Shown here piece after piece: positions 49,148 through 58,016 of a stretch of 64,000 nt of DNA. Origin of the DNA: an uncultured Chitinophagaceae bacterium (GTDB taxonomy: Bacteria; Bacteroidota; Bacteroidia; Chitinophagales; Chitinophagaceae). The stretch lies in NCBI GenBank assembly GCA_938017685.1, contig CALIIL010000011.1:1-64000 (forward strand), written 5' to 3'. The translations under genes were made by a program, and so were the position numbers. The notes beneath the pieces are model-generated. The model did not search any database. It worked only from the letters and a program-made list of their open reading frames with translations, and was not told where the DNA came from. Numbering within the stretch: position 1 is the first letter of the stretch; each line of letters begins with the position of its first letter.

Positions 49148-49495
49148 TTATTTGTTTTTTAGTTCTTTAATTTCCTTCCCTAAAGATTTTACCATATCTA
49201 CTATTGACTTAATGACTTCAGGATCAGAATAAAAATTATGTTGAATTTGATTTACGGAAGCTTTATCTGAAAAATGGCTATTAAAAATATTAAAAGCCGT
49301 CATTGGAATAAGCTCGAATACTGGAATGTCAAGGGCTTCAGCAGTTCGATTAATTTCATCCCAAGTTGGTGATTTTTTACCTCTTTCAATATCTGATAAG
49401 CGATGAGTGTCTATTTTAATTAAGTCAGCAAGTGTTGCTTGGTTAATATCTTTTTTCACACGTGCAACTTGTATTTTTTTACCTATAGATTCCAT
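49148..49495 (-). CDS. XRE-family helix-turn-helix regulator
   Basis: 'IGKKIQVARVKKDINQATLADLIKIDTHRLSDIERGKKSPTWDEINRTAEAL'. Confidence 0.88.
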   Translation of the reverse strand: MESIGKKIQVARVKKDINQATLADLIKIDTHRLSDIERGKKSPTWDEINRTAEALDIPVFELIPMTAFNIFNSHFSDKASVNQIQHNFYSDPEVIKSIVDMVKSLGKEIKELKNK

Positions 49496-49591: not shown

Positions 49592-49996
49592 ATGAAAAAT
49601 ATGAAAATTTTCTTTGGTGTTTTGGTGTTGCTTTTTACTGGCGTTACAGTTAGCGCTAAGCATACACAAATTACCAAAGAAAATCAAGGTCCAGATGGCT
49701 TTAAGTATGTGCATGAATTTCACGACCAAGCATCAAATACTCTTTCTTGTAAGGAGCCTGGAACTAACTTGTGCGCTTGGCTGAAACATTCGGGAAGTAG
49801 TTATACAATAATTGGTAATGGAACCGATTATTTAGTCGATGATTTAGTAGCCTATGCCGAAGGGCAAATGGATCAAGGGCTTAATTCTGGCACTACAGTT
49901 TTTCCAGGTCAGGTTTTAGTAACATGGGAAACAACTGAACTTGGATATGTAATAACAATATTAAACGGAACTGATTTTCCAGAACATTTAAAATAA
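49592..49996 (+). CDS. Small secreted protein, CK[ED]PG family copy 1
   Basis: Signal peptide; paralogous to next two ORFs. Confidence 0.8.
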   Translation: MKNMKIFFGVLVLLFTGVTVSAKHTQITKENQGPDGFKYVHEFHDQASNTLSCKEPGTNLCAWLKHSGSSYTIIGNGTDYLVDDLVAYAEGQMDQGLNSGTTVFPGQVLVTWETTELGYVITILNGTDFPEHLK

Positions 49997-50001
49997 TAAA
50001 A

Positions 50002-50406
50002 ATGAAGAATATTAAAATTTTAATTTGTGCAATACTATTTATACTATCCTCTAATATTGCTAAAGCTAAGCATACACAAATAACCAAAGAAAATGGAGGT
50101 GCAAATGGGTATAAACATGTAACAGAAATTCGAAATGAAACATCAGATATTCTCAATTGTAAAGAACCTGGTTATTCGAGTTGCACATTCACTAAAGACA
50201 ATGGTCATGGACTTACCATCATAGGAAATGGAACCGATTATTTAGTAGAGTATTTAGTAGCCTATGCCGAAGAACAAATGAACCAAGGTGTTGCCTCTGG
50301 TATTACAGTTTTTCCAGGTCAGGTTTTAGTAACTTGGGAAACAACGGAATATGGGTATATAATAACAATATTAAACGGAGATGATTTTCCAGAACATTTA
50401 AAATAA
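50002..50406 (+). CDS. Small secreted protein, CK[ED]PG family copy 2
   Basis: Shares 'KHTQITKEN', 'IIGNGTDYLV..LVAYAE.QM.QG', 'TVFPGQVLVTWETTE.GY.ITILNG.DFPEHLK' with copy 1. Confidence 0.8.
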   Translation: MKNIKILICAILFILSSNIAKAKHTQITKENGGANGYKHVTEIRNETSDILNCKEPGYSSCTFTKDNGHGLTIIGNGTDYLVEYLVAYAEEQMNQGVASGITVFPGQVLVTWETTEYGYIITILNGDDFPEHLK

Positions 50407-50413
50407 AATAATT

Positions 50414-50806
50414 ATGAAAAGAATAAAAGAAATAGGAATGATTTTAGGGTGCTTATTTTTAATTGTCTCAAGCTCATATGCAAAAGAGGTTGTAATAGTA
50501 AAGAAAAATGAAGGTGCTGATGGTTTTAAGTATATCTACGAATGGTGCAATGGTTCATTTCATTCATTGTATTGCAAAGATCCTGGATATTCTAGCTGTT
50601 TTATTGGCAATCATGGAAATTTGGCTCATTATGGAGGCTATACAATGGATCAAGTGTATAGTATTGTTGAAGATGCAATAGCAATGGGTAATATACCAGG
50701 TAAGTTAATTCAAGAGAATGTTGTTATTACATGGCAATATTTAGAGGACGATGAGTTGCAAATTAAAATTTACACAGAATCTGATATACCTTTACAAATG
50801 CAGTAA
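50414..50806 (+). CDS. Small secreted protein, CK[ED]PG family copy 3 (divergent)
   Basis: 'NEGADGFKYIYEWCNGSFHSLYCKDPGYSSC' matches 'GGANGYKHVTEIRNETSDILNCKEPGYSSC' of copy 2. Confidence 0.75.
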   Translation: MKRIKEIGMILGCLFLIVSSSYAKEVVIVKKNEGADGFKYIYEWCNGSFHSLYCKDPGYSSCFIGNHGNLAHYGGYTMDQVYSIVEDAIAMGNIPGKLIQENVVITWQYLEDDELQIKIYTESDIPLQMQ

Positions 50807-50819
50807 CTTCAGTATTTAT

Positions 50820-52055
50820 ATGATCGCAAACCATAAATTAATACTATTTTTTATCACCATTATCATGAGTTCTTGCCAGGCGCAACAACTTTTTATTAGT
50901 AGTAACAAGATAAATACCAATATAAGTAGCACTATACCTGCTAATGAAATATATTACGATATAAATAATTCAAGTTTATTTTATCTACACAAGCCCAACA
51001 AGAATAAGTTAACAATATATAAATCGGCTTTAAAATCAACGAATAAAAGCCAATCAGATTCAGTAACGCTAGTCATTAATGATTATGATAATATAGTTGA
51101 TTTGGCGGTAAGTAATGATGAAAAGATTGCTTTGCTAACCTATGATAGTTTGTACATCTATAATAAATCCAGCTTGGAATACAAGAATGCTGTAACAGAT
51201 GTTACCAATGTCAAAATTATTAATGACAGCACACTTCTATTATATCAAGTTTATAATACCCATCCGCTGGATGGTTTTACAGGAGCAAAGCTTCAAGTGA
51301 TAAAAAAGAGAAATAATACCTATACAACAGGCGAGTCCAAATTGATGTTTTATGAGGGGATTCAATTCAGCCATAGGGTTAAACATTGGGTTGCAGTCGC
51401 AAATAATAAAATCTATCTAACCAAAACGCTCAGTCAAAAATCGATAGTAATGGATGTAGATTTGAATGTTCTCAAAGAAATACCTATAAAGAATAATTTT
51501 CAGAACAATAATATTCAATCGTATCTGGATAGCATAACTATGAGTAAACTAGCGATTGTGGATAGTATGTCCATGAACAAGGTTTCTACAAGAGAAATTG
51601 TAACTTATTTAAGAAGAAACAGAAGCTTTAGTGTTAAATCTTTTTACTATGATACCTTATTAAGTATCGATAGTTCAATTTTTAGGGTCGAAAAAGTTTT
51701 TGCATTTAAGCATTATCTAATCTATTCCAAGAAGTTTCCGAATGCTAGAGATGCGGAAAGAAAAATTGATATCTATGATCTAAAAAAACATAAGAGAGTT
51801 ATAACAGATAAATATTTTTCATTAAATCGAGATCCTATAAAATCAGAGCAAGACTTAGTTCCATTAGGACTTTCGTATAGTAATAAAATTGCCTATAACT
51901 CAGATGGATTATTGGTACAATATTCAGGTCAATCATACATACCAAATAAAATTAAATATCCAATATCGAGAGAAGATTTAAAAAAACAATTGAACAACTA
52001 CTACTTGGACCATGACGGAACAGGTACTTTCTTTGTTTATAGCATTAATCCATGA
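50820..52055 (+). CDS. Uncharacterised lipoprotein, possibly beta-propeller-like
   Basis: Start adjusted to MIANHKL; lipobox 'IIMSSCQAQ'; blade-like repeats of short beta segments. Confidence 0.65.
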   Translation: MIANHKLILFFITIIMSSCQAQQLFISSNKINTNISSTIPANEIYYDINNSSLFYLHKPNKNKLTIYKSALKSTNKSQSDSVTLVINDYDNIVDLAVSNDEKIALLTYDSLYIYNKSSLEYKNAVTDVTNVKIINDSTLLLYQVYNTHPLDGFTGAKLQVIKKRNNTYTTGESKLMFYEGIQFSHRVKHWVAVANNKIYLTKTLSQKSIVMDVDLNVLKEIPIKNNFQNNNIQSYLDSITMSKLAIVDSMSMNKVSTREIVTYLRRNRSFSVKSFYYDTLLSIDSSIFRVEKVFAFKHYLIYSKKFPNARDAERKIDIYDLKKHKRVITDKYFSLNRDPIKSEQDLVPLGLSYSNKIAYNSDGLLVQYSGQSYIPNKIKYPISREDLKKQLNNYYLDHDGTGTFFVYSINP

Positions 52056-52510
52056 TTAGAGTAATCTTTATTTTATTGTTTATGAATTTCGGCGCCGAAG
52101 CGCAAGACTATGACCTTGATAATTTACGTACAATAAGAAATGAACCAGTCACTTATGATAGTGATAAAAGCAATATAATAATTACAACTACAAATAAAAT
52201 TTGTTATAACTGCCTCTTGCAATTGGACAGCACTATGACTATTGATACAAATAGTCATAGTCTATATTTGGTAATGGTTGCCAAAGAATATAATGTTCTC
52301 AGCATAAAACAATTTAAGCGTATGGTTGCTAAAGCCTTTACGAAAAATAGTCCGTACATAAACATATTAGTGAATATAGATGCTAAAAATATCAATATTC
52401 TCTCGCCCTTCATGCACTATCAAGCACTTAATAGGAAATTAGTCTATTTATCCTATGAGTGTTTATTTCAAAAAAATAGAGTATACTCGTTAAAAGAGAT
52501 TTTGAGATAA
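52052..52510 (+). CDS. Small secreted CxxC protein, possibly redox/thioredoxin-like
   Basis: Signal peptide and 'NIIITTTNKICYNCLLQLDSTM'; ATGA overlap with upstream gene. Confidence 0.55.
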   Translation: MIRVIFILLFMNFGAEAQDYDLDNLRTIRNEPVTYDSDKSNIIITTTNKICYNCLLQLDSTMTIDTNSHSLYLVMVAKEYNVLSIKQFKRMVAKAFTKNSPYINILVNIDAKNINILSPFMHYQALNRKLVYLSYECLFQKNRVYSLKEILR

Positions 52511-52787
52511 AACATATTAAAAAAATTGGTGATGTGAAAGAAACCCATCATCAACAAGCCTTTCCGACGTCAGAAAGGTTCATCTATCAGTCGGAAATCT
52601 GTCCATACAGATCCGTGAATATTAGAAAAGCAAGTCCAGGCGAGGTTAGTCCAAATAATTTGCCACCACCCGTTCCATATTTCACTAATTTCTACAAAGA
52701 TGGTAAGCGTGTGGAACAGGAATAATTGAGGTTGAATCTGTTTACAACAAATTATTAAGATTAGCATTTAACTCAGTATGCTTGAAT

Positions 52788-52795
52788 TATATTTG
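52788..52795 (+). promoter_or_regulatory. Putative -7 element TATATTTG upstream of dnaN
   Basis: TATATTTG 17 nt before ATG 52813. Confidence 0.5.
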
Positions 52796-52812
52796 TCCCA
52801 AACTAAGAAAAA

Positions 52813-56955: not shown

Positions 56956-57483
56956 TTAAGGCGTTTCATATTTATAACCTACATAAGTAGTTTTGGACTG
57001 TGTACTGTTTAATGGGTCGTTCTTAAATAAGGTAATTGTAATGACATCGTTATTTAGACTCCCATTACCTACAAATGCAGCACTACCAACGGTTTGTTCG
57101 GTTATATTAACCATATTGCCCGTTACTTTGGCTTCCCAACCATCAAAACTAGCTGTATCTCTAATTGATACAAATTTTATTAAGTTACGTACTTGTGGGT
57201 CTGCTGTTACGCGTATTGTATCATCATTATCATAAATAATAGTGTTGTCTATCAACTCCGTGCGAATAACGGCATAATGGCTTTCAAATTTTTGGTTGGC
57301 CGGTGTGGTACAACTATCACCTTCCCAAGAGTCTATACATACACACTCTCCATCCATGCAAAGACCGTTGTGCTCGCATACAATGTCTCTTGCCTTACAA
57401 GCGTTATATTGACAGCTACTAAGGCTTAATAAGCCTGCACCTGCTACAAATAATAGTATAATAAGAATATATTTTTTAGTCAT
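56956..57483 (-). CDS. Lipoprotein with EGF-like module
   Basis: Lipobox 'LSLSSCQYN'; 'CKARDIVCEHNGLCMDGECVCIDSWEGDSC'. Confidence 0.8.
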   Translation of the reverse strand: MTKKYILIILLFVAGAGLLSLSSCQYNACKARDIVCEHNGLCMDGECVCIDSWEGDSCTTPANQKFESHYAVIRTELIDNTIIYDNDDTIRVTADPQVRNLIKFVSIRDTASFDGWEAKVTGNMVNITEQTVGSAAFVGNGSLNNDVITITLFKNDPLNSTQSKTTYVGYKYETP

Positions 57484-57494
57484 GTATTGAGTTA

Positions 57495-58016
57495 TTATTG
57501 ATCTTGAAAACGTTCACCGTTGAAATCACATGAGAATTTATTTGGACCGTCCTCATCTTCGGTTAAGTAGAGCACGACAAACTCGCCATTTACATAGCCA
57601 TTACCGCTATAAGTCGTTCCATTGATACTCTGCTCAGCAATGGTTAAGTTTATGCCCTCAACCGTTCCAATAATGCTTATCCCTTGATCAAATAAGTTAT
57701 AAATATCAACTTCGTTAGGTGCTACACCCGGGTTGATAATAAAGCTGCGCGCTGAAGGTAGTCCGCCATTACAGCGATAGGTACCATCCCAAGTACCAAT
57801 AAATTTTTCGTAAGCTTTGAATTGGCATAGTGGACCATCAAATCCATCGGCACATACGCACCTGCCATCTCTACAAATTCCATTGTTCTTACATACAATA
57901 TCCGAGCAAGGATCATTGCATGATACAAGAGATGTGGATAACGCTAAAAGCATAAACCCAATAACACTAACAAATACGGCTTTCCATGATTTCATGCGAT
58001 AAAGAATTATTAACAA
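57495..58016 (-). CDS. Lipoprotein with EGF-like module (paralog)
   Basis: 'LSTSLVSCNDPCSDIVCKNNGICRDGRCVCADGFDGPLCQFKAYEKFIGTWDGTY'. Confidence 0.8.
   Translation of the reverse strand: MLIILYRMKSWKAVFVSVIGFMLLALSTSLVSCNDPCSDIVCKNNGICRDGRCVCADGFDGPLCQFKAYEKFIGTWDGTYRCNGGLPSARSFIINPGVAPNEVDIYNLFDQGISIIGTVEGINLTIAEQSINGTTYSGNGYVNGEFVVLYLTEDEDGPNKFSCDFNGERFQDQ

What the first reader, a model, noticed from the sequence alone, without database searches (positions are those of the whole stretch)
49592..52510. Tandem family of small secreted CK[ED]PGxxxC proteins followed by a lipoprotein and a CxxC secreted protein
Three adjacent ~130-aa signal-peptide proteins share a two-cysteine motif (CKEPGTNLC, CKEPGYSSC, CKDPGYSSC). 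Copies 1 and 2 are nearly identical in their 3' halves while copy 3 is divergent, which suggests duplication with gene conversion. The cluster continues into a lipoprotein with repetitive beta segments and a secreted CYNC protein, all same-strand and tightly packed, downstream of a divergent XRE regulator. I recognise no described system; it could be a secreted effector/adhesin or peptide set with its surface partner and disulfide helper.
Basis: partly seen in the sequence, partly recalled or inferred. Interest (0 to 1): 0.7.

Follow-up and report, generated by a model that had tools for sequence, protein, structure and literature searches.

The report
Secreted disulfide-protein cassette with propeller partner
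The three small secreted proteins, the lipoprotein and the CxxC protein form a real, apparently undescribed gene cassette that recurs in fixed order in distant members of this bacterial phylum, probably encoding a disulfide-bonded exported protein, a beta-propeller that binds it, and a dedicated thiol enzyme.

Summary
Three tandem ~130-aa signal-peptide proteins with a C-x7-C motif precede a 411-aa lipoprotein and a 152-aa secreted CxxC protein, on one strand with gaps of 5, 7, 13 and -4 nt. Copies 1 and 2 are mosaic (dS 0.14 in the last 34 codons, 1.18 around the Cys motif), as gene conversion predicts.

No Pfam, NCBIfam or PADLOC family was met, and the layout small-propeller-thioredoxin recurs in 19 cassettes from 17 genomes of two classes, plus a rearranged variant. 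Profiles built without the window recover its proteins (E 7e-20, 4e-17, 2e-8). Among 398 genomes of the order, small protein and propeller occur in the same five. One genome fuses propeller and CxxC protein. The lipoprotein family models as a beta-propeller; the CxxC protein is thioredoxin-like. The Cys pair is kept in 25/26 cassette-linked small proteins but 1/5 orphans.

Best reading: an acidic, exported, disulfide-bonded small protein, matured by a dedicated thiol oxidoreductase and bound by a propeller. Biological role unproven. Similar layouts built from other families exist in the phylum, so I call it a new variant. The XRE gene is only a neighbour.

The parts
49592..49996 (+). small secreted protein, copy 1 (134 aa, signal peptide, CKEPGTNLC)
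   Evidence: leave-one-out profile E 2.5e-19
50002..50406 (+). small secreted protein, copy 2 (134 aa, CKEPGYSSC); 3' third converted with copy 1
   Evidence: leave-one-out profile E 6.9e-20; dS mosaic
50414..50806 (+). small secreted protein, copy 3 (130 aa, CKDPGYSSC), divergent
   Evidence: leave-one-out profile E 4.3e-15
50820..52055 (+). predicted lipoprotein (411 aa) of a secreted beta-propeller family
   Evidence: leave-one-out profile E 3.9e-17; family model and Foldseek
52052..52510 (+). secreted thioredoxin-like protein (152 aa, CYNC), start overlaps the propeller gene by 4 nt
   Evidence: leave-one-out profile E 2.3e-8; thioredoxin-type matches of relatives
49148..49495 (-). divergent XRE-family regulator (115 aa); neighbour, not a conserved part of the cassette
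   Evidence: HTH_3 E 1.4e-6; not found beside other cassettes

Best explanation
One functional cassette. The small proteins are exported through Sec and carry one conserved cysteine pair (C-x7-C). The thioredoxin-like protein is their dedicated extracytoplasmic thiol oxidoreductase and forms or resets that disulfide. The beta-propeller (lipoprotein in the window, lipobox-bearing in some relatives, apparently soluble in others) binds the folded small protein as holder, receptor or protective partner in the periplasm or at the outer membrane. Shown here: linkage, fixed gene order, a propeller-thioredoxin fusion, a propeller model for the family, thioredoxin-like sequence, and coupling of the cysteine pair to the cassette. 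Inferred: export, disulfide chemistry, physical binding. Guess: the output is a released or surface-held effector or binding protein that diversifies by duplication and conversion.
For: 19 cassettes in 17 genomes, always small protein, propeller, thioredoxin on one strand; propeller and thioredoxin genes overlap in 15 of 18 and are fused in L082. Same five genomes of 398 for small protein and propeller; 7 of 8 strong propeller genomes of another class have the small protein adjacent. Leave-one-out recovery. Propeller model pTM 0.69, Foldseek 493 matches at E <= 0.001. CxxC invariant, Ser/Thr-Pro before a late strand, weak DsbG and thioredoxin matches. Cys pair in 25/26 cassette-linked against 1/5 orphan small proteins. 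Precedent: Bacteroides lack the general disulfide machinery, and a thiol oxidoreductase gene beside bacteroidetocins is needed for full activity (PMC6671954).
Against: No experiment. The thioredoxin-like family is the weakest link: L019, L053 and L054 are poorly recovered. The model of the small protein is low in confidence (pLDDT 61), and the propeller model is of a relative (20-21% identical), not of P0004. The Cys-pair count is small and not corrected for relatedness. G858 has propeller and thioredoxin without a detected small protein, and orphan small proteins exist.
Confidence: 0.5

Rival explanations
1. Toxin-immunity cassette: the small proteins are secreted antibacterial proteins, the thiol oxidoreductase matures them and the propeller protects the producer.
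For: Tandem, mosaic, fast-diverging small genes; sporadic presence, about 1% of the order; bacteroidetocin loci of the phylum pair a Cys peptide with a thiol oxidoreductase (PMC6671954); DUF5128 propellers sit beside double-glycine Cys peptides and a peptidase-ABC exporter in L109.
Against: The small proteins are strongly acidic (median charge -6.4) and about 100 aa when mature, unlike cationic bacteriocins; no exporter beyond a signal peptide; bacteroidetocin loci have no propeller and no immunity protein.
Confidence: 0.22
2. Periplasmic subunit complex on the logic of methylamine dehydrogenase (from memory: small Cys-bearing subunit, propeller subunit, thioredoxin-like maturation factor MauD): the small protein is a stable subunit on the propeller, with an enzymatic or binding role.
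For: Same three kinds of part; one Trp (W112 of P0002) and two Gly columns are nearly or wholly invariant in 30 small proteins; propeller and thioredoxin fused in L082; acidic, soluble small proteins.
Against: No Pfam or NCBIfam match to any dehydrogenase subunit in any member; usually one Cys pair, not many; only one invariant Trp; no linked cytochrome, radical-SAM or MauE-like gene seen; several small proteins per propeller and conversion between them fit a subunit poorly.
Confidence: 0.13
3. Redox sensor: the small protein's disulfide reports envelope redox state through the thioredoxin-like protein, read by propeller and XRE gene.
For: Conserved Cys pair and CxxC partner; XRE gene beside the cassette in the window.
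Against: The XRE gene is not conserved with other cassettes; no membrane signalling gene is linked; conversion and rapid divergence are unusual for a sensor.
Confidence: 0.08

Closest known systems
Bacteroidetocin loci (PMC6671954)
   Same: Small exported Cys-bearing product encoded beside a thiol oxidoreductase, in Bacteroidota
   Different: 42-residue double-glycine peptides with a peptidase-ABC transporter and a five-TM protein; here Sec-type signal peptides, ~100-aa acidic proteins and a propeller, no transporter
DUF5128 (PF17170) propeller loci with small Cys proteins (L108, L109, L110, L113; no paper found)
   Same: Layout: small exported Cys-bearing protein beside a secreted propeller, with a thioredoxin-like gene in L110
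   Different: Small proteins not detectably homologous; propellers only at the edge of detection (best E 7e-5; no significant hhalign match for the L085 set)
DUF4221 / BF0058-type exported propellers (PDB 3s9j, 4raa)
   Same: Predicted fold; highest TM-scores among the 50 listed PDB matches (0.50-0.58)
   Different: No sequence match in Pfam or PDB searches
Thioredoxin-like periplasmic proteins (DsbG, TlpA types)
   Same: CxxC after a strand, Ser/Thr-Pro before a late strand; weak matches E 0.017-0.03 in PDB and 0.0025 in Pfam
   Different: Below family cut-offs; no CGPC or CPHC site
NVEALA (PF14055) and DUF6520 (PF20130) small secreted proteins
   Same: Small secreted proteins of the same phylum; DUF6520 gives a sub-threshold hit over signal peptide and Cys region (E 0.005)
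   Different: No match over cut-off in any member; the one marginal NVEALA locus read has no propeller or thioredoxin neighbour

Membership tests
Beta-propeller fold (middle gene) | closed ring of four-stranded blades | tested here: inconclusive
   Model of relative L057, pLDDT 68, pTM 0.69; Foldseek list dominated by propellers. P0004 itself not modelled; kinship E 3.9e-17
DUF4221 / DUF5128 propellers | profile match over cut-off | tested here: not met
   No Pfam match in 15 members, no PF17170 match in G000
Thioredoxin superfamily (last gene) | CxxC active site after a strand, cis-Pro-like residue | tested here: met
   C51 and C54 invariant in 13 members; Ser/Thr-Pro in most
Thioredoxin superfamily (last gene) | profile match over cut-off | tested here: not met
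   P0005 none; relatives E 0.0025 at best
DUF6520 | score over 25.4 bits | tested here: not met
   17.7 bits for P0002
NVEALA | profile match over cut-off | tested here: not met
   No match in any small protein nor in G000
Bacteroidetocin-type bacteriocin locus | double-glycine leader and peptidase-ABC transporter | tested here: not met
   Signal peptides, no transporter in the cassettes
Toxin-immunity system | growth inhibition and self-protection | not testable with these tools
   needs a bench assay
Methylamine dehydrogenase (Mau) | homology of subunits to MauA, MauB, MauD | tested here: not met
   No such Pfam or NCBIfam match

The most novel reading that the evidence does not exclude
The cassette is one lineage of an undescribed, phylum-wide class of exported disulfide-protein systems, in which unrelated small Cys proteins (this family, signal-peptide Cys proteins as in L108 and L110, double-glycine peptides as in L109) are each paired with a secreted beta-propeller as cognate partner and often with a dedicated thiol oxidoreductase.
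Probability: 0.3. Interest if true: 0.75.

Novelty: new variant of a known kind. Interest (0 to 1): 0.55.

Why it matters
It adds two protein families that no library searched here models (the small protein and its propeller) and ties them with a thioredoxin-like partner into one conserved unit. If the reading is right, it gives a concrete substrate for extracytoplasmic disulfide formation in a group where the general machinery is reported missing in Bacteroides (PMC6671954), with a testable rule: the cysteine pair persists where the thiol enzyme is linked. It would also suggest a job for some of the many unexplained secreted propellers of Bacteroidota, as partners of small exported proteins.

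Tried and rejected
Chance ORFs: rejected by conservation across genomes. NVEALA kinship: PF14055 gave one sub-cut-off match in 119 genomes, with no propeller or thioredoxin neighbour. DUF6520: sub-threshold, largely signal peptide. PADLOC: nothing for the five cassette genes. Spurious matches of the small-protein profile: G428 lies inside a 2,117-aa ORF, G678 has no such gene, G456 is a 43-residue match in a 728-aa frame; G860 and G895 are marginal and were not read. hhalign of A6 and A7 against the neighbouring set in L085: no significance. Foldseek of the small protein: nothing. Papers on NVEALA, DUF5128 or DUF4221: none relevant. Propeller tree: branches too long to decide vertical or horizontal descent (AU p 0.28). 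Promoter scan: no more hits than shuffles.

Full report
Three small signal-peptide proteins (134, 134, 130 aa) at 49592-49996, 50002-50406 and 50414-50806 are followed by a 411-aa predicted lipoprotein (50820-52055) and a 152-aa secreted CYNC protein (52052-52510), all on the + strand. Gaps are 5, 7, 13 and -4 nt. An XRE gene lies divergently at 49148-49495. The flanks are housekeeping genes: the neighbouring ORFs read as ATP synthase alpha and DNA polymerase beta clamp (my reading of the translations).

Copies 1 and 2 are a mosaic. Synonymous divergence is 1.18 in codons 31-72, which hold the Cys motif, 0.80 in 73-100 and 0.14 in 101-134. Partial gene conversion leaves this pattern; selection on protein sequence alone would not be expected to lower dS in one segment. 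Copy 3 is about 30% identical to the others.

No cassette protein of the window matches a curated family over its cut-off in Pfam or NCBIfam, or any PADLOC model. Among relatives, the small-protein and propeller families have no convincing Pfam or NCBIfam match either, and profile searches of the PDB give nothing useful for those two.

The families are nevertheless real. A search of 100 relatives with copy 2 found a two-copy locus in G086 whose downstream genes repeat the window's layout. A profile of six small proteins found the family in five genomes among 398 of the order (a sixth match, G428, is spurious), and each of the five has the small protein, the ~400-aa secreted protein and the CxxC protein together. 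Searching the order with the ~400-aa family recovered the same five genomes and only two marginal fragments besides. So within the sampled order the two families co-occur completely. G003, outside that sample, has a lone small protein.

One phylum-wide and two overlapping class-wide searches added cassettes in a different class. tabulates 19 cassettes in 17 genomes: always one strand, small protein first, then propeller, then CxxC protein, with extra small or propeller copies in some. Propeller and CxxC genes overlap in 15 of 18 and are one protein in L082, where the propeller and thioredoxin profiles both match strongly (E 4e-34 and 2e-20). G779 (L047) is a variant: small protein and propeller, with a CxxC-bearing 571-aa protein upstream instead. 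Seen from the propeller, 7 of 8 genomes with strong matches in a sample of 104 carry the small protein next to it; the eighth (G858, 67% complete) has propeller and CxxC gene alone, and G532 has two weaker propellers without partners.

To make sure that inclusion in the alignments does not create the kinship, each locus was left out in turn. Profiles from the other genomes recover the window's small proteins at E 6.9e-20, 2.5e-19 and 4.3e-15, its propeller at 3.9e-17 and its CxxC protein at 2.3e-8. The CxxC family is the weakest: L019, L053 and L054 are recovered poorly or not at all.

Folds. The propeller of relative L057 was modelled with four sequences (pLDDT 68, pTM 0.69). Foldseek gives 493 PDB matches at E <= 0.001; nearly all of the 50 listed are beta-propellers, as far as their names tell, and the highest TM-scores belong to exported Bacteroides proteins, BF0058 (4raa) and the DUF4221 protein BVU_1028 (3s9j). 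The small-protein model is too weak to name a fold (pLDDT 61; strands, one helix at 82-94, three strands). The CxxC family has its cysteines in the expected strand-CxxC-helix place and a Ser/Thr-Pro before a late strand in most members, with weak matches to DsbG-like and thioredoxin-like proteins.

Cysteines and cassette. Of 26 small proteins in cassettes, 25 keep the C-x7-C pair (the second copy in L048 has neither; L085 has one extra residue between). Of five orphans (L003, L050, two in L083, L087) only L050 keeps both. Fisher's test on 24/25 against 1/5, before L114 was added, gives p 0.0009, uncorrected for relatedness. The genomes of L003 and L083 have no detected propeller, while those of L050 and L087 have cassettes elsewhere. 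Cassette-linked proteins are acidic with one exception, and the orphans less so on the whole.

Interpretation. Gene order, overlap and fusion argue that propeller and CxxC protein act together; the Cys-pair rule argues that the CxxC protein acts on the small protein. In Bacteroides the general disulfide machinery is reported missing, and deletion of a thiol oxidoreductase gene next to the bacteroidetocin peptide attenuates toxin activity (PMC6671954). I therefore read the cassette as an exported disulfide-bonded small protein, its dedicated thiol oxidoreductase and its propeller partner. Binding and chemistry are inferred. Antagonism is possible, but the proteins are acidic and larger than typical bacteriocins. 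The XRE gene looks like a neighbour only.

Wider setting. PF17170 (DUF5128) propellers in other Bacteroidota sit beside other small Cys-bearing exported proteins: with a thioredoxin-like gene in L110, apparently without in L108 and L113, and with double-glycine peptides and a peptidase-ABC exporter in L109. In L085 a set of small protein, 431-aa protein and CxxC protein stands directly before our cassette. These are not clearly homologous to our families, apart from weak signals, so the resemblance is one of layout. I found no paper describing either, within an open-access library only. For these reasons I rate it a new variant rather than categorically new.

Noticed in passing
window 56956-58016 (-): Two adjacent ~175-aa lipoprotein-like paralogues with an EGF-like Cys stretch (CxxxxxVCxHNGxCxxGxCxCxxxxxGxxC).
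   Followed up: no
window 52511-52812 (+): Stretch between cassette and DNA clamp gene with a hairpin (CCTTTCCGACGTCAGAAAGG, 52559-52578) and a 63-aa GTG ORF without family match; may be a terminator and a gene remnant.
   Followed up: partly
L109 (2493-14558, -): Double-glycine Cys peptides, a peptidase-ABC transporter, an HlyD-like protein and several DUF5128-type propellers in one locus: looks like an exported-peptide system with propeller partners.
   Followed up: partly
L110 (1301-4754 and 16176-19758): Small Cys-bearing signal-peptide proteins, DUF5128-type propellers and a thioredoxin-like gene, twice in about 20 kb.
   Followed up: partly
L083 (5390-6310, -): Two orphan members of the small-protein family without the Cys pair, in a genome with no detected propeller; near-identical C-terminal parts and divergent N-terminal parts, a mosaic like that in the window.
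   Followed up: partly
L047 (6770-10469, -): Upstream of the small protein, a 571-aa protein with an N-terminal CLSCG thioredoxin-like stretch and a 517-aa neighbour, perhaps further thioredoxin-propeller fusions.
   Followed up: partly
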